The position numbers and the translations under genes are program-made. A stretch of DNA of 64,000 nt from a virus: IMG/VR virus record IMGVR_UViG_3300023202_000142, positions 1 through 64,000 of that record. One strand, given 5' to 3'. The notes below the pieces were generated by a model. It worked only from the letters and a program-made list of their open reading frames with translations. It searched no databases and was not told the DNA's origin. Numbering within the stretch: position 1 is the stretch's first letter; every line of letters starts with the position of its first letter. Below, one piece after another: positions 7,667-62,244 of the stretch.

Positions 7667-7750
7667 TTGCTACCTCCGGGGTAGGGTGGAGCCGGGAGGC
7701 GGGTGACCTCTCCGGCACCTTCATTATGTGCACGCTGTGCACGGCGTCAA
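7667..7750 (-). promoter_or_regulatory. promoter P3 and leader hairpin
   Basis: Leftward TTGACG, two GTGCAC sites and a -10 in ATAATG. The leader hairpin is at 7691-7716 (GCCGG...CCGGC, CACCCGC loop), then GGAGGTAGC. The -35 abuts a repeat remnant at the distal end of the CRISPR array. Confidence 0.68.
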
Positions 7751-8741
7751 GGGCATGAAACGGGATTGCGGCACGGCATTCGTCTGAGCATCTAACCCAC
7801 TCAGCAGGGCCTGAAACCTCGCTTATGCGGGGCCATTGGGGATCTCGGGCTGAGGGTGTGTCTGAGCATTTAACCTGCTCAGCAGGGTGTGAAACGACGA
7901 GCTGGCTCCGAGGCTTCGGGAGATGGTCTGAGCATCTAACCCGCTCAGCAGGGTGTGAAACATGTGCGTCCTCAGCGCGTGGGCGTGTTGCGGGACATAC
8001 GTCTGAGTATCTAACCCACTCAGCAGGGTGTGAAACTGTCTGGTACCCCGCATCGTCTGAGCATCTAACCCACTCAGCAGGGTGTGAAACCGGTCTCACG
8101 ACTCCTGGAAGGTCGTCTGTCTGAGTATCTAACCCACTCAGTAGGGTGTGAAACGTTGCGGAACGTGGCCACGGGCGCGGTCGATGCTGGGTTCCTTGTC
8201 TGAGTATCTAACCCACTCAGCAGGGTATGAAACTGGGTGCCCAACGCTGCGCGGACTGTGTCTGAGTATCTAACCCACTCAGCAAGGTTTGAAACCCGTG
8301 GCCATGGATGTACCTCAACCTCGACGTCTGAGTATCTAACCCACTCAGTAGGGCCTGAAACGTCAATCAGCGGAAAAACCAAGAAGTCGGATCGATACGG
8401 TCTGAGTATCTAACCCACTCAGGGCTCCCACAACAAGGGTGTCCTCGGGCAGATCCGTGATGTCTGAGCATCTAACCCACTCAGTAGGGTGTGAAACACT
8501 TCTCAATGAATAAGGTGAGTTCACCGACAAGAGACCATTCAGTCTTATTCGATATCGTCTGAGCATCTAACCCGCTCAGCAGGGTATGAAACACTGCGGA
8601 AGCTGGGACCAGACCTGTCAGCAGCCCCAGGGTCTGAGCATCTAACCCGCTCAGCAGGGTATGAAACTCGATCTTGCGTGGTCCCTCTCCGTCCCAGTAG
8701 CCGTCGTCTGAGCATCTAACCCACTCAGCAGGGTGTGAAAC
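7751..8741 (-). CRISPR. solitary CRISPR array, 14 repeats plus a terminal remnant
   Basis: Repeats of 36 nt start at 7782, 7860, 7926, 8001, 8055, 8119, 8198, 8260, 8326, 8400, 8462, 8557, 8632 and 8706. The one at 8400 keeps only 23 nt, and 12 nt of another remain at 7750-7761. Plus-strand ends are GTCTGAG and GAAAC. Spacers are 18-59 nt. On the minus strand a CTGAG...CTCAG hairpin lies at the repeat 3' end, two bases before the spacer, as expected of Cas12 crRNAs. That orientation is co-directional with the cas12 gene 60 nt upstream. Confidence 0.93.
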
Positions 8742-8800: not shown

Positions 8801-10516
8801 TCATTCCGCTGCGTCTGAAAAAGTACACTTGTATGAATTCAGCAGGTTACGGGCTGCGTTGAGATCCTGGTCCCATTCGGCACCGCAGTGCTCGCAGGCG
8901 TGCCGGAGCTGGGATGCGGCATCCCAATCGCAGATCTCGCCACAACGATGACATGACATCGTAGTGTAGGCAGGGTCCACCCGTATAATCTCGGTGCCGG
9001 TCTTCGATGCCATTAACTCCAGGGCGTCCCGAAACTCGCCGATGGCAGCAATCTTGCGAAGGTTTCTGGACCTGCCGTGCTGATTCTTGTCCTCCTCGGG
9101 TTCCGGCAACTTCGCAAGCCTCGAAAGGTCGAGATCTTCGAGAACGATTACGCCATGTCGTTCGCACAGCTTCTTGGCCAGGATTCGGTATCGTTCTTTG
9201 CGCCGGTTCAGCGTTTTGCGTGTCTGGTTTTCGTGCCACTGGTGCAGATGGCGATCTTGTTTCCGCCATGCCTCCGCGGCCTCAAACATTTCGCCGTCAC
9301 TCCCAAATCGATTCTCTGACCACTTCCAAACGAACTTGCGCATCCGTTCCTTGGAGCGCCACTTGGATACATGACTGAGATCCGCCTTGAACCACTCAGG
9401 GCTGTCCCCATCGACCCAGTCAGCCAGGACATCTCTGAACTCATTGAATTCGCGGTCCCGGATAGACAGCAGAGAGTCGGCATGGTCGAAGCGATCGACA
9501 AATGCTGCGTCGTCCAGGAGTAACTCGTAGTGGTCATCGCCACAATCCACGTAAGCGAATCTAAGACCACTGAGCCTCTTGCGCCATCCGACATCGATTC
9601 CCGCCACACTGTTCGGTGCCGGGTGGGCAGGGGCATCGAAGGTGTCGGAGACCACAGTGAGTTGGAGTGACCAGCGGTATCTGGTGCCGACCTTCTTGCG
9701 CTTGACCCACGCCCACTTGATGACAGCATCGTCAGGCAGGGGTCTGTGGACATGCAGATCTTTCCAGGTCGACCACACCGGAGTCCTGTTTCCAGGCCCC
9801 TCTGAGCCTACTCGCAATCGCAGTGTGGTCCTGCAGAGCCTCTTGCGCTCCCCGCGCGGCGTGTCGGGATCCCATGCCCTGGGGTCGACAGGTTCGATTT
9901 GGATACGAGTATCCTCGCACCCAAAAAGTTCGTCGACTGACATCCCGCCCTGGATCTGGATACCGACTCGCCCGTTCTCTCCCCTGCCCCGCCACCTGAC
10001 AAATCGCGGGTCTTGTCTGGACTTGGATGCCTGTTTGACGGCGTCCTCGATGAGATTGCGAGTCCCCCAGTGAACCGTGCATTCACTGCGGTACAGTTTC
10101 TGAAGCACTATGAATCTCTCGTCGACAAGATCGACGGCTTCTCCGACATCGTCGCGCTTCAGGGCTTGCTTCTTGGCGGCCCCCCGTCGCTTCCTGGCCG
10201 CTCGAATAGCCGCCTTTATGCCCTTGACCTCCTTGCGCGCAGACTTCGTAACGCTTCGACTGCGCTTGGATGAGTTTTGGTCGGAGATCGATGACCTGAC
10301 CTCGGACAACTCGGCCTCCAGGGCTGAGATCTCTGTGCAAGCATCGGCGTAATCCGTGGAGTGTGCCGCTAGCGTTGCTCGGTACGCCGCCCGCTTGTCG
10401 AGTTCCAGCTCTATGAGCCTGTTCTGATGTCGATGTGCCCTCCAGATGATCTCATCGATCATCTCGGCCTCTTCTGGGCCGAAGGGCAAACCGTACTTGT
10501 AGATCCTGACGCCCAT
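8801..10516 (-). CDS. cas12m-like: Cas12m-like (type V-U1/V-M) CRISPR effector with intact RuvC, 571 aa
   Basis: An RNA-guided DNA-binding effector expected to use crRNAs from the adjacent array. Visible parts are an N-terminal region with a long basic coiled coil (about 60-125), a beta-rich middle domain, and a split RuvC. RuvC-I is GIDVGWR (D308), RuvC-II is VIVLEDLDL (E460), and RuvC-III is WDQDLNAARN (D549/D551). A zinc finger has C522, C525, C541 and C544. The start MGVRIYKYGL, the HVHRPLPDDA segment and the WDQD ending recall Cas12m, whose studied members have a degenerate RuvC and bind without cutting. Here all acidic positions are present. TnpB is the alternative, but the array and absence of transposon ends argue against it. 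No cas1 or cas2 nearby. ATG follows GGAGAAC. Confidence 0.88.
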   Translation of the reverse strand: MGVRIYKYGLPFGPEEAEMIDEIIWRAHRHQNRLIELELDKRAAYRATLAAHSTDYADACTEISALEAELSEVRSSISDQNSSKRSRSVTKSARKEVKGIKAAIRAARKRRGAAKKQALKRDDVGEAVDLVDERFIVLQKLYRSECTVHWGTRNLIEDAVKQASKSRQDPRFVRWRGRGENGRVGIQIQGGMSVDELFGCEDTRIQIEPVDPRAWDPDTPRGERKRLCRTTLRLRVGSEGPGNRTPVWSTWKDLHVHRPLPDDAVIKWAWVKRKKVGTRYRWSLQLTVVSDTFDAPAHPAPNSVAGIDVGWRKRLSGLRFAYVDCGDDHYELLLDDAAFVDRFDHADSLLSIRDREFNEFRDVLADWVDGDSPEWFKADLSHVSKWRSKERMRKFVWKWSENRFGSDGEMFEAAEAWRKQDRHLHQWHENQTRKTLNRRKERYRILAKKLCERHGVIVLEDLDLSRLAKLPEPEEDKNQHGRSRNLRKIAAIGEFRDALELMASKTGTEIIRVDPAYTTMSCHRCGEICDWDAASQLRHACEHCGAEWDQDLNAARNLLNSYKCTFSDAAE

Positions 10517-12547: not shown

Positions 12548-12630
12548 CGCTACCTCCTGGGTCGAAGGGGGAGGGCGGGGCTTCCCTCCCCGGGACACCA
12601 ACAATATGTGCACGCCGTGCACAGTGTCAA
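12548..12630 (-). promoter_or_regulatory. promoter P4 and leader hairpin, upstream of the cas12 unit
   Basis: Leftward TTGACA (12625-12630), two GTGCAC sites, then a -10 in ATATTG. A strong leader hairpin at 12567-12591 (GGGGAGGG...CCCTCCCC) and AGGAGGTAGCG follow. No other promoter of this type is seen before the array, so cas12 and crRNAs are probably expressed from here. Confidence 0.7.
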
Positions 12631-59308: not shown

Positions 59309-59382
59309 GCCCGGGTAGGCTAACTGGCAACGCCGCGGTCCTAAGAAGGCCGTGAGTGTGGGTTCGACTCCCACCCCGGGTA
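59309..59382 (+). tRNA. tRNA-like, anticodon AAG (Leu codon CUU), short variable loop
   Basis: Acceptor GCCCGGG/CCCGGGT, anticodon loop CUAAGAA, T-arm GTGGG/CCCAC. A bacterial tRNA-Leu should have a long variable arm; this has 5 nt. CCA not encoded. Confidence 0.75.
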
Positions 59383-59384
59383 CT

Positions 59385-59456
59385 GCTCCCGTACCCCAAC
59401 GGCAGAGGAGCGGCCTTAAAAGCCGTCGAGTCCGGGTTCGATCCCCGGCGGGAGCA
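59385..59456 (+). tRNA. tRNA-like, anticodon UAA (Leu codon UUA), short variable loop
   Basis: Acceptor GCTCCCG/CGGGAGC, stem GCGGC/GCCGT, loop CUUAAAA. Again class I in shape despite a Leu anticodon. Confidence 0.78.
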
Positions 59457-59458
59457 TG

Positions 59459-59531
59459 GCGCCCATAGGCCAACAGGAAGAGCCGCGTGGTTCAAACCCC
59501 GTGGGTCCAGGTTCGATCCCTGGTGGGCGCA
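59459..59531 (+). tRNA. tRNA-like, anticodon CAA (Leu codon UUG), possibly 8-nt anticodon loop
   Basis: Acceptor GCGCCCA/TGGGCGC, T-arm CCAGG/CCTGG. The only consistent stem (CGTGG/CCGTG) leaves the 8-nt loop UUCAAACC. That would suggest a frameshifting tRNA, or one surplus C. Confidence 0.7.
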
Positions 59532-59535
59532 TGAT

Positions 59536-59621
59536 GGAGGGTTGGCAGAGCGGTAATGCATCGGTCTTGAAAACCGACGAGTCCCTGACGGGGCGCGAGG
59601 GTTCGATCCCCTCACCCTCCT
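59536..59621 (+). tRNA. tRNA-Ser(UGA)
   Basis: Acceptor GGAGGGT/ACCCTCC, loop CUUGAAA, and a long variable arm as expected for serine. Confidence 0.93.
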
Positions 59622-59625
59622 CTGA

Positions 59626-59697
59626 CTGGGTGTGGGCCAGTGGTTGGCCACTTGCTTTGGGAGCAAGGTTACGGGGGTTCGAATCCCTCCACCCAGA
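59626..59697 (+). tRNA. tRNA-Pro(UGG)
   Basis: Acceptor CTGGGTG/CACCCAG, stem CTTGC/GCAAG, loop UUUGGGA. Confidence 0.92.
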
Positions 59698-59770
59698 TGA
59701 CCTGTAGCTCAATTGGCAGAGCACTGCACTTTGACTGCAGTGGTTCGAGGTTCGAATCCTCGCAGGTCAA
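59698..59770 (+). tRNA. tRNA-Gln(UUG)
   Basis: Acceptor TGACCTG/CAGGTCA, stem CTGCA/TGCAG, loop CUUUGAC. No spacer from the preceding tRNA. Confidence 0.93.
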
Positions 59771-59773
59771 TGC

Positions 59774-59844
59774 GGCGACGTGTGCGAGTGGTTAGCGCTC
59801 GGATTGCAAACCCGAGGACGCGGGTTCGAGTCCCGCCGTCGCCT
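59774..59844 (+). tRNA. tRNA-Cys(GCA)
   Basis: Acceptor GGCGACG/CGTCGCC, loop UUGCAAA. Confidence 0.9.
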
Positions 59845-59845
59845 T

Positions 59846-59930
59846 GGAGCAGTGGCAGAGTGGCAATGCAGCGGGTTGCTAACCCGTAGGTCGTTTCGAC
59901 GGCCCGGGGGTTCGATCCCCTCCTGCTCCG
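59846..59930 (+). tRNA. tRNA-Ser(GCU)
   Basis: Acceptor GGAGCAG/CTGCTCC, stem GCGGG/CCCGT, loop UUGCUAA, long variable arm. Confidence 0.93.
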
Positions 59931-60000
59931 TATCTCACTGAAATCGAGCTGGAATCAGCTCGGAGCTGGCTGCTAGGGTCGGGTAACCCTGGAGGCTCAG

Positions 60001-60273
60001 ATGACTCTGACAGAACACGTGGACCTTCTCCTCGAAGCGCGCATGTCGTCGCGGGAGCAGAAGCTAGTCGGTAACATGTTGGTGGGCATGGAGATGGAAG
60101 AATACGGTGGCAACACCGAGCGCTTCTACCGCTGGATCGAGCGGAAGACGGATGAATTCCTGGAGGAACTCTACGCAAGGCTCGAAGGTAACGTGCGCGA
60201 AGCCGACCGGAAGAGGCTAACATCGCTAAAGGCCAGGGAGTACATTGCATTGCACAACATGGCGCTAACCTAG
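60001..60273 (+). CDS. tag-bearing helical protein between the tRNA clusters, 90 aa
   Basis: MTLTEHVDLLLEARMSSREQ is one of the best copies of the tag. The rest is helical (RKTDEFLEELYARLEG). TAGGGT at 59974 and TGGAGG before the ATG give it its own promoter and ribosome site. Confidence 0.78.
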   Translation: MTLTEHVDLLLEARMSSREQKLVGNMLVGMEMEEYGGNTERFYRWIERKTDEFLEELYARLEGNVREADRKRLTSLKAREYIALHNMALT

Positions 60274-60282
60274 CCCGCCTCG

Positions 60283-60501
60283 CTAACCGAGGTCTCCGGG
60301 CTCAGCCCCGTCGAGAACTCCGAGGACCAGTCGACGGTATTCGTCTCGGGGGATCTCGATGGCGTCGGCGATGGCATCAAGGATGTCTCCGGGGGTGCAG
60401 CCTGCTCGAAGACGACTGACGATGATAGCACCTCCGACCACGAGTCGGTCGGGATTGACGTACATCTCAAGGGTTGGTTCAGAATCTTGTGCATTGGGCA
60501 T
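60283..60501 (-). CDS. hypothetical protein, 72 aa
   Basis: MPNAQDSEPTLEMYVNPDRL reads leftward from 60501 behind GGAGGGGATAGGAG. Helical end (DILDAIADAIEIPRDEYRRL). Divergent from the 60570 gene; one of few minus-strand genes in this arm. Confidence 0.66.
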   Translation of the reverse strand: MPNAQDSEPTLEMYVNPDRLVVGGAIIVSRLRAGCTPGDILDAIADAIEIPRDEYRRLVLGVLDGAEPGDLG

Positions 60502-60569
60502 CTCCTATCCCCTCCAACTGCGTTTTGATAGTCTGAGGCTGTCCGTAGCTCGACGCAACAGGAGACGCA

Positions 60570-60980
60570 ATGAGAGACATTCTGAACCGCTTACTGAGTA
60601 GACTGCCCCACCAGTGGGCTCGTGATGCCTCGACCGGCCAACACGCCCTCCTGGAGGCTGTGAGCTTCGAATTGCAGCGCATCTATGATCGAATCGGCGG
60701 TCGGCCCGATCAAATCGTGTTCGAACGCGTCGATCTGATGAACCCCTCACCCGACGATGTCCTGGTGTTGACCATGAAGGTCCCGACATCATTCGGGATC
60801 ACGAACTGGATCGACCAGGCGCAACGGATGAGTGATGACCTCAAGGATGCCCTGGGGGTTCGTGAAATCATCGTACTGCCAGACATCGTACACATCGAAA
60901 ACCTGGGTAATCTCGACGCCAACACCGCAAAAGAGCTTGGGAAGCTCAGGAATGTCATCGCGGCACTGAAGGGTGCTTGA
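60570..60980 (+). CDS. hypothetical protein, 136 aa
   Basis: MRDILNRLLSRLPHQWARDA starts behind CAGGAGAC. Amphipathic N-terminus, alpha/beta body (VLTMKVPTSFGITNWIDQAQ). Not a clear tag. No family. Confidence 0.75.
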   Translation: MRDILNRLLSRLPHQWARDASTGQHALLEAVSFELQRIYDRIGGRPDQIVFERVDLMNPSPDDVLVLTMKVPTSFGITNWIDQAQRMSDDLKDALGVREIIVLPDIVHIENLGNLDANTAKELGKLRNVIAALKGA

Positions 60981-61005
60981 CGACCGAATCCAGGTTCAGT
61001 AGGGT
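60977..61005 (+). promoter_or_regulatory. promoter for tiny ORF and tRNA cluster B
   Basis: TTGACG, exactly 17 nt, TAGGGT. Confidence 0.68.
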
Positions 61006-61018
61006 TCGTTTTGAAGCA

Positions 61019-61120
61019 ATGCTCACTGCCCGAGAAGGACAGATGCTTTCAACACGGATGGAAACAGGTACGGATAATCGCTGGACCGGGACGCCCCGGG
61101 CCGGAGGCGATGTCGTGTAA
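61019..61120 (+). CDS. tiny protein ahead of tRNA cluster B, 33 aa
   Basis: MLTAREGQMLSTRMETGTDN ... GGDVV. Sits between promoter and terminator exactly like the 35-aa frame before cluster A; sequence unrelated. Confidence 0.42.
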   Translation: MLTAREGQMLSTRMETGTDNRWTGTPRAGGDVV

Positions 61121-61143
61121 CTGTTGTTCATCGACATGAGTCT

Positions 61144-61173
61144 AGGCCCGGAGGAAACCCCTCCGGGCCTTTT
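61144..61173 (+). terminator. intrinsic terminator before tRNA cluster B
   Basis: AGGCCCGGAGG and its exact complement CCTCCGGGCCT with a 5-nt loop, then TTTT. Confidence 0.85.
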
Positions 61174-61183
61174 CTCGTTCTGG

Positions 61184-61205
61184 GGTCTTTGAAAATTGAA
61201 GATGA
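61184..61205 (+). promoter_or_regulatory. boxA-like antitermination element
   Basis: GGTCTTTGAAAATTGAAGA followed by TGA, 4 nt before tRNA-Asn. Second copy of the element at 59282. Confidence 0.6.
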
Positions 61206-61209
61206 AAAG

Positions 61210-61281
61210 TGGTCGGTAGCTCAGCGGTAGAGCGTCGGGTTGTTAACCCGAGGGTCGTGGGTTCGAGCCCCACCCGGCCAG
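61210..61281 (+). tRNA. tRNA-Asn(GUU)
   Basis: Acceptor TGGTCGG/CCGGCCA, stem TCGGG/CCCGA, loop UUGUUAA. Confidence 0.93.
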
Positions 61282-61285
61282 TTCA

Positions 61286-61358
61286 GCCCCCTTGGCCCAG
61301 TGGCTAGGGCAACCCGTTGTCTGCGGGAAGATCGTCGGTTCGACTCCGACAGGGGGCG
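61286..61358 (+). tRNA. tRNA-Asp(GUC)
   Basis: Acceptor GCCCCCT/AGGGGGC, loop UUGUCUG, one mismatch at the top of the anticodon stem. Confidence 0.9.
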
Positions 61359-61376
61359 CTGGGGGCAACCCCATGA

Positions 61377-61450
61377 AGCGGGATAGAGCAGTCTGGTAGC
61401 TCGTCGGCCTCATAAGCCGAAGGCCGGGGGTTCAAATCCCCCTCCCGCTA
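61377..61450 (+). tRNA. tRNA-Met(CAU)
   Basis: Acceptor AGCGGGA/TCCCGCT, loop CUCAUAA. The D-arm resembles initiator tRNA, but A1-U72 pairs and the three GC pairs of initiators are incomplete, so an elongator or hybrid is likely. Confidence 0.9.
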
Positions 61451-61517
61451 CTGAGTGCGCACATCGACCAAGGCGGTCCTAGATCACGGGTACGCGGGTT
61501 GGTGAAGGCGGCTCAAT

Positions 61518-61591
61518 GCCAGTGTAGCTCAATCAGGCAGAGCAGCTCCCTTGTAAGGAGAAGGCTGGGGGTTCGATTCCCTTCACTGGCT
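61518..61591 (+). tRNA. tRNA-Thr(UGU)
   Basis: Acceptor GCCAGTG/CACTGGC, loop CUUGUAA. Confidence 0.92.
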
Positions 61592-61595
61592 TAGC

Positions 61596-61668
61596 GTCGC
61601 CGTCATCTAGTGGCCCAGGATGCCGGGTTTTCAGTCCGGTCACGGGGGTTCGAGTCCCCCCGGCGATA
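61596..61668 (+). tRNA. tRNA-Glu(UUC)
   Basis: Acceptor GTCGCCG/CGGCGAT, stem CCGGG/TCCGG, loop UUUUCAG. Confidence 0.92.
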
Positions 61669-61672
61669 CTGT

Positions 61673-61746
61673 AGGGAGCGCGCGCTGGGTACGCGGTCTG
61701 GCCTCCAAAGCCGGACGACAGCTCGGATCGTCACCGAGGCTCTCTG
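61673..61746 (+). tRNA. tRNA-Trp(CCA), atypical T-loop
   Basis: Acceptor AGGGAGC/GCTCTCT, stem CTGGC/GCCGG, loop CUCCAAA. The T-loop reads AUCGUCA instead of UUCGANU, so folding or maturation may be unusual. Confidence 0.82.
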
Positions 61747-61751
61747 TGTGC

Positions 61752-61843
61752 AGGCGTGGCCCGCCAGAGCTGGAGAGCTGGGCCGGGCTGTAAACCCGGT
61801 GCACCCAAATAAGACTGAGTGGGTTCGACTCCCACCTCCCCTA
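61752..61843 (+). tRNA. tRNA-Tyr(GUA), degenerate acceptor
   Basis: Stem CCGGG/CCCGG, loop CUGUAAA, long variable arm, T-arm GTGGG/CCCAC. The 5' acceptor (AGGCGTG) pairs only partly with CTCCCCT, so the 5' end is uncertain. Confidence 0.72.
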
Positions 61844-61853
61844 TGGAGAATGC

Positions 61854-62069
61854 ATGACACGCAACGATGACATCACCCCCTACGCGCGGCGCATCAGGCG
61901 TATGCTGCATGAGCGCATGAACCCCGAAGCGGTCGAGGTCGAGGTCGAGATCATGCGACGTCTTCGTGAGACCTCCGAGCGCAGTGTCTACCACCGCGCC
62001 ATGCTCACGCCCCTACCTGTTGAGTCTGGAGGTGCCGCGTTTCTGCGGCGCGACAAACCCGAGGAGTGA
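61854..62069 (+). CDS. small protein inside tRNA cluster B, 71 aa
   Basis: MTRNDDITPYARRIRRMLHE; basic helix then an acidic one (EAVEVEVEIMRRLRETSERS). Lies between tRNA-Tyr and tRNA-Lys genes. No motif. Confidence 0.65.
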   Translation: MTRNDDITPYARRIRRMLHERMNPEAVEVEVEIMRRLRETSERSVYHRAMLTPLPVESGGAAFLRRDKPEE

Positions 62070-62074
62070 GGTTC

Positions 62075-62148
62075 GGGCCGGTAGCTCAGTTTGGCAGAGC
62101 GGCGGATTCTTAATCCGCAGGTCGAGGGTTCGATCCCCTCCCGGCTCA
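62075..62148 (+). tRNA. tRNA-Lys(CUU)
   Basis: Acceptor GGGCCGG/CCGGCTC, stem GCGGA/TCCGC, loop UUCUUAA. Confidence 0.93.
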
Positions 62149-62152
62149 CTTC

Positions 62153-62228
62153 GCGCCCGTAGCTCAACTAGGTTCAGAGCATTCGACTTTTAATCGAAGG
62201 GTTCTCGGTTCGATTCCGAGCGGGCGTG
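62153..62228 (+). tRNA. tRNA-Lys(UUU)
   Basis: Acceptor GCGCCCG/CGGGCGT, stem TTCGA/TCGAA, loop CUUUUAA. Confidence 0.93.
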
Positions 62229-62244
62229 CTGTACGATCCCTTCC

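What the first reader, a model, noticed from the sequence alone, without database searches (positions are those of the whole stretch)
7751..8741. CRISPR array with unusually irregular spacers and no adaptation genes
The 13 internal spacers measure about 42, 30, 39, 18, 28, 43, 26, 30, 38, 39, 59, 39 and 38 nt. One repeat keeps only 23 of 36 nt, and only 12 nt of the terminal repeat remain. Cas1-Cas2 normally yields near-constant spacers, so growth may be by recombination, host adaptation machinery plus decay, or another route.
Basis: seen in the sequence. Interest (0 to 1): 0.75.

Follow-up and report, generated by a model that had tools for sequence, protein, structure and literature searches.

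The report
Old type V-M CRISPR in phage
A large bacterial virus carries a compact CRISPR system (one Cas12m protein plus a row of guide sequences), and its guides vary in length most likely because it is an old row of guides that has suffered deletions and insertions while the parts Cas12m must hold stayed intact, not because it grows in a new way.

Summary
The 571-aa gene just upstream on the minus strand (8801-10516) encodes Cas12m, and the array is read on the minus strand behind it, so this is a virus-encoded subtype V-M system. V-M loci typically lack adaptation genes.

The same cas12m-then-array unit occurs in about 20 other loci, mostly virus contigs. Their arrays are regular (133 of 150 spacers are 34-40 nt). 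Irregular units cluster at the end far from cas12m. One near-identical virus pair differs by two cas12m-proximal 38-nt spacers although no Cas1 is found in either, which fits Cas1-Cas2 acting in trans.

In the window all 14 repeats keep the hairpin, and the shortest spacer (18 nt) matches the 17-bp guide-DNA duplex of solved Cas12m2. Best reading: spacers acquired at about 38 nt by host machinery, then eroded by indels while crRNA function was maintained. Spacer targets were not found. New member of a known kind.

The parts
8801..10516 (-). cas12m (type V-M effector), 571 aa, RuvC triad D308-E460-D551, four zinc-ribbon cysteines C522/C525/C541/C544
   Evidence: PADLOC Cas12u1 371 bits over residues 2-561; best sequence hit in PDB Cas12m 23vw, E 1e-83; top four PDB fold matches are all Cas12m; Pfam Cas12f1-like TNB domain; invariant residues
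8742..8800 (-). 59-nt gap between cas12m stop and first repeat (leader position)
   Evidence: sequence; the gap is 33 nt in L001 and 23 nt in L010
7762..8741 (-). CRISPR array: 14 repeats, 5'-GTTTCACACCCTGCTGAGTGGGTTAGATGCTCAGAC-3' on the minus strand, with 14 spacers
8400..8422 (-). Truncated repeat: keeps only the 3' 23 nt (the hairpin part); its new 5' flank AGCC can still pair with the loop GGTT
8498..8556 (-). Longest spacer, 59 nt
8423..8461 (-). 39-nt spacer next to the truncated repeat
   Evidence: parsed there as 26 + 13
8037..8054 (-). Shortest spacer, 18 nt
7762..7781 (-). Last (cas12m-distal) spacer, 20 nt
7750..7761 (-). Terminal repeat remnant GTTTCATGCCCT, 12 nt; its last base is the first base of the next promoter
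7723..7750 (-). Phage dyad promoter (TTGACG-N16-CATAAT around GTGCACAGCGTGCAC) that starts where the array ends and points into the next leftward genes
   Evidence: one of 16 such elements in the record; promoter function is inferred from consensus
12601..12630 (-). Dyad promoter likely heading the leftward operon that ends in cas12m and the array
   Evidence: operon membership is inferred

Best explanation
This is a phage-encoded type V-M (Cas12m) CRISPR system. Shown by sequence and comparison: Cas12m is encoded directly upstream of the array on the same strand; the repeat has the V-M form with a hairpin and a second loop-to-5'-flank helix; and the irregular lengths are unlike those of most relatives. 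Inferred: spacers of about 38 nt are inserted at the cas12m-proximal end by Cas1-Cas2 supplied in trans by the host. In this phage insertion has been rare or absent for a long time, so the array aged. Small deletions and insertions changed spacer lengths and one repeat flank, while selection kept every crRNA handle and a guide of at least about 17-18 nt, the length Cas12m pairs with its target. Cas12m cuts the transcript within the repeats and each crRNA then leads it to matching DNA, most likely of competing phages or plasmids, where it blocks transcription or replication by binding. Cleavage cannot be excluded because the RuvC triad is the full D-E-D.
For: Effector identity. Same gene-array unit in Rctr197k and about 20 other loci. 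Regular spacers in relatives, irregular units distal. Leader-end difference of two full-length spacers between viruses with identical cas12m, no Cas1 in 18 records. In the window all 70 stem pairs are unchanged across 14 repeats and none of the 8 variable columns lies in the stem. No indel in 322 nt of handle against 9 altered spacers (Poisson 0.004, Fisher 0.016). The second helix can form in 14 of 14 repeats, including the truncated one. In relatives, diverged distal repeats keep their stems by paired changes (25 against a shuffle mean of 8, maximum 15 of 1000; cleanest in L045). Shortest cleanly bounded spacers are 17-18 nt, against a 17-bp duplex in Cas12m2 (PMC10442227). Precedents for trans acquisition: PMC8092290, type IV plasmids in PMC11656645. 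No dsDNA cleavage by tested D-E-D Cas12m: PMC11013384.
Against: No close relative of this phage was found (best Cas12m identity 37%), so no spacer could be compared before and after shortening; decay here is inferred from other lineages. The polarity within the window array is only suggestive (p 0.054). The 59-, 43- and 42-nt spacers need insertions as well as deletions. Repeat bases outside the hairpin are also largely constant, so constancy may reflect copying rather than selection. The leader-end difference between L031 and L028 could be a loss in the others. No spacer target was found. The statistical cut-offs were chosen after seeing the data.
Confidence: 0.72

Rival explanations
1. Imprecise acquisition: new spacers are integrated by a foreign Cas1-Cas2 that measures poorly on this repeat, so lengths vary from the start and the 23-nt repeat is a mis-sized target-site duplication.
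For: The 39-nt spacer beside a repeat lacking exactly its first 13 nt is what an integration 13 nt inside the repeat would give. Host machinery must act in trans because no Cas1 is present.
Against: Related arrays without Cas1 have 34-40 nt spacers at the acquiring end, and the two spacers unique to L031 are both 38 nt. Four of the five cas12m-proximal spacers here are 38-39 nt.
Confidence: 0.14
2. Growth and shuffling by recombination between repeats or with other arrays, without Cas1-Cas2.
For: Repeat variants are interleaved along the array, and L042 shows a near-tandem duplication of a two-spacer block.
Against: Recombination between repeats duplicates or deletes whole units and does not create new spacer sequences or within-spacer length change; all 14 spacers here are different.
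Confidence: 0.06
3. Dedicated short guides: some spacers, above all the distal 17-25 nt ones, are kept at near-minimal length because they serve a fixed regulatory role such as repressing a phage or host gene.
For: The last spacer is 25 nt or less in 5 of 14 related arrays against 2 of 136 other positions; handles of distal units are maintained by paired changes; one relative carries two copies of a spacer matching its own cas12m.
Against: Short spacers share no sequence and match nothing in their own records at two mismatches or fewer.
Confidence: 0.12
4. Assembly or sequencing artefact.
For: Metagenomic assembly of a repetitive stretch; reads not available.
Against: 14 distinct spacers, indels confined outside the hairpin, and matching distal irregularity in unrelated records.
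Confidence: 0.03

Closest known systems
Subtype V-M (formerly V-U1) CRISPR-Cas12m, e.g. Mycolicibacterium mucogenicum Cas12m2, Gordonia otitidis Cas12m, Meiothermus silvanus Cas12m
   Same: Size, fold, repeat form (36-37 nt, 3' hairpin ending in GAC), array beside the gene, no adaptation genes
   Different: Encoded by a 185-kb tailed phage; RuvC triad D-E-D rather than the H-D-D of Cas12m2 and GoCas12m; spacers irregular
Virus Rctr197k cas12m locus (KX853510.1)
   Same: 33.7% identical effector over 99% of length, same gene-array layout, diverged distal repeats with irregular spacers
   Different: Its nine cas12m-proximal spacers are regular; it carries a second type V locus
Phage-encoded type V systems without Cas1 (Cas12j, type V-U and V-F of huge phages, PMC7162821)
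   Same: Virus-borne, single effector, no acquisition genes
   Different: Other effector families in the case of Cas12j and V-F
Type IV-A plasmid CRISPR and Flavobacterium VI-B arrays that acquire spacers in trans
   Same: Array without own Cas1 fed by another system
   Different: Shown by experiment there, inferred by comparison here

Membership tests
Subtype V-M (Cas12m) | Effector in the Cas12m (V-U1) clade rather than Cas12f or TnpB | tested here: met
   Cas12u1 371 bits full length; a Cas12f-labelled PADLOC model scores close behind (365 bits) and also matches the Meiothermus silvanus protein, but PDB sequence and fold both put Cas12m first
Subtype V-M (Cas12m) | CRISPR array next to the effector gene | tested here: met
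   59 nt apart, same strand
Subtype V-M (Cas12m) | Repeat with conserved two-helix crRNA scaffold | tested here: met
   Hairpin found in 21 of 22 consensus repeats by the script's fixed rule (L025 is offset by a base); loop-flank complementarity above all 2000 shuffles; repeats of Ms and the window align
Subtype V-M (Cas12m) | No tracrRNA needed | not tested
   No search for an anti-repeat RNA was made
Subtype V-M (Cas12m) | Binds target DNA without cutting dsDNA | not testable with these tools
   Triad is D-E-D; tested D-E-D orthologues did not cut (PMC11013384)
Complete, self-sufficient CRISPR-Cas (own Cas1-Cas2) | cas1 in the same genome | tested here: not met
   No Cas1 in 185,324 bases; the record may be incomplete. 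Cas2 and Cas4 were not searched
Active, recently growing array | Identical repeats and full-length spacers at the leader end | tested here: inconclusive
   First two spacers are 38 and 39 nt, but first and second repeats differ at two bases

The most novel reading that the evidence does not exclude
Virus-borne V-M arrays hold a class of long-lived crRNA units, mostly at the far end, whose guides have been cut down to the 17-25 nt that Cas12m actually reads and whose diverged handles are kept working by paired changes; these serve a standing regulatory task rather than adaptive defence, and the window array consists largely of such units.
Probability: 0.13. Interest if true: 0.68.

Novelty: new member of a known kind. 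Interest (0 to 1): 0.42.

Why it matters
It adds a tailed-phage member to V-M systems, known mainly from plasmids and some prophages, and shows a broad set of virus-borne V-M loci in which array ageing can be read. The set makes two questions testable: whether these Cas1-less virus arrays are fed in trans by host Cas1-Cas2 (a natural virus pair differs by two leader-end spacers), and whether the lower limit of spacer erosion is set by the 17-bp pairing length of Cas12m.

Tried and rejected
Spacer targets: whole array against 50,697 phage and 72,556 plasmid records, best E about 3, not significant; exact 20-22 nt cores of five spacers against IMG/VR, none; all spacers against the phage's own record, no more than chance; spacers of all arrays against fetched contigs, only the L042 self match. 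First relative search with the single protein found nothing; an alignment was needed. An early count gave distal spacers of exactly 18 nt in several arrays; checking boundaries by eye moved three (L032 to 20, L042 to 21, L039 ambiguous 18 or 31), so the exact-18 claim was dropped and the test repeated. The plus strand as crRNA strand was rejected because relatives share the hairpin-GAC end on the cas12m strand. A first fuzzy-match array caller missed repeats and was replaced. Pair counts include some misregistered repeats (L001, L027, L032), which inflate broken pairs. The Fisher and Poisson tests treat each changed spacer as one event and used thresholds set after seeing the data. Single-sequence RNA folding of the repeat was uninformative.

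Full report
What is there. The window is the first 64 kb of a 185,324-base virus record with tailed-phage genes (terminase, portal, protease, major head protein). At 7750-8741 lies a CRISPR array of 14 repeats. The repeat core matches 14 times and 0 times in shuffled sequence, and nowhere else in the record.

The effector. PADLOC's V-U1 model covers it end to end at 371 bits. A second PADLOC model labelled Cas12f scores 365 bits, but it also hits the Meiothermus silvanus protein (locus L046, NC_014214); identifying that protein with the MsCas12m studied in PMC11013384 is my inference from the species. The best PDB sequence match is Cas12m (E 1e-83). An AlphaFold model (mean pLDDT 86) has four Cas12m entries as its four best PDB fold matches. 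RuvC residues D308, E460 and D551 and four zinc cysteines are present. Because the gene and the repeat hairpin (CTGAG...CTCAG-AC) point the same way, the crRNA strand is the minus strand.

Relatives. Alignment-based searches found the same unit, cas12m followed directly by an array on the same strand, in virus Rctr197k and in a series of IMG/VR contigs and two MAG contigs, one of which is identical to a virus contig. Repeats are 36-37 nt and end in GAC or CAC. Across 22 repeats the 5' flank pairs with the hairpin loop through different base pairs in different lineages; the mean complementarity exceeds all 2000 shuffles. This corresponds to the two-helix scaffold solved for Cas12m2 (PMC10442227).

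How unusual are the lengths. In 14 related arrays 133 of 150 spacers are 34-40 nt; in the window 5 of 14. So the irregularity is real. In relatives irregular units are concentrated in the distal half (14 of 73 against 3 of 77), and the last spacer is 25 nt or less in 5 of 14 arrays against 2 of 136 elsewhere. Rctr197k shows the gradient most plainly: nine regular units by the gene, then diverged repeats with spacers of 27, 59, 49 and 13 nt among regular ones. Repeat mutation and indels toward the leader-distal end are a described property of arrays (PMC4869251). In the window the trend points the same way but is not significant (p 0.054).

Route of growth. Contigs L028, L030, L035 and L031 have identical cas12m genes; L031 has two further cas12m-proximal spacers, both 38 nt, and shares the next seven. 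No Cas1 was found in any of 18 such records. Gain at the leader end by Cas1-Cas2 in trans is the natural reading; loss in the others is possible. Trans acquisition is established for a VI-B array (PMC8092290) and reported for plasmid type IV (PMC11656645).

Is the window array still functional? All 70 stem pairs in 14 repeats are unchanged, and the eight variable columns avoid the stem. The second helix can form in all 14 copies, even in the repeat that lost its first 13 nt, where the new flank AGCC faces GGTT. No indel falls in 322 nt of handle, though at least nine spacers changed length. In relatives, diverged distal repeats keep stems by paired changes, 25 observed against 8 expected. The shortest cleanly bounded spacers are 17-18 nt here and in relatives, just above the 17-bp guide-target duplex of Cas12m2. 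I infer erosion under selection for a working handle and a minimal guide.

Context. A phage dyad promoter (TTGACG...GTGCACAGCGTGCAC) begins at 7750, sharing a base with the terminal repeat remnant; 16 such elements occur in the record. The array thus fills the space between cas12m and the next leftward promoter, and is probably transcribed with cas12m from the promoter at 12630 (inference).

Limits. Spacer targets are unknown, no close relative exists in the collections used, reads are not available, and only five spacers could be searched in IMG/VR, as exact cores. Tests were shaped after seeing the data and should be read as descriptive.

Noticed in passing
L042:1227-1266 and spacers at L042:3305 and 3455: Two identical 40-nt spacers match the virus's own cas12m coding sequence perfectly (40 of 40), about 20 codons from the start; a two-spacer block is duplicated. 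Suggests self-acquired or autoregulatory guides.
   Followed up: partly
L031 versus L028, L030, L035: Viruses with identical cas12m differ by two cas12m-proximal 38-nt spacers although no Cas1 is found in them: a natural record of leader-end change.
   Followed up: partly
L001:634-888 and L093:574-1977: Virus Rctr197k has a second CRISPR array beside a 467-aa protein matching PADLOC Cas12u3 (117 bits): two type V loci in one virus.
   Followed up: partly
window 3157, 7196, 7750, 12630, 14859, 31047 (-) and 52359, 52910, 54049 (+): Family of dyad promoters of the form TTGAC, spacer, GTGCA, spacer, GTGCAC; 16 in the 185-kb record, probably a phage-specific regulon.
   Followed up: partly
L018 (VBAH01000059.1) and L034: A contig binned as an Alphaproteobacteria MAG is identical over the locus to an IMG/VR virus contig, so this apparently bacterial cas12m is probably viral.
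   Followed up: no
L039, last repeat of the array (after the spacer GCTGCTTTCGCTCCGCCA): Second case of a repeat keeping only its 3' hairpin part, with a replaced 5' flank, as at window 8400-8422.
   Followed up: no
window 59309-62229: Cluster of 16 tRNA genes, one with a four-base anticodon call (caaa).
   Followed up: no
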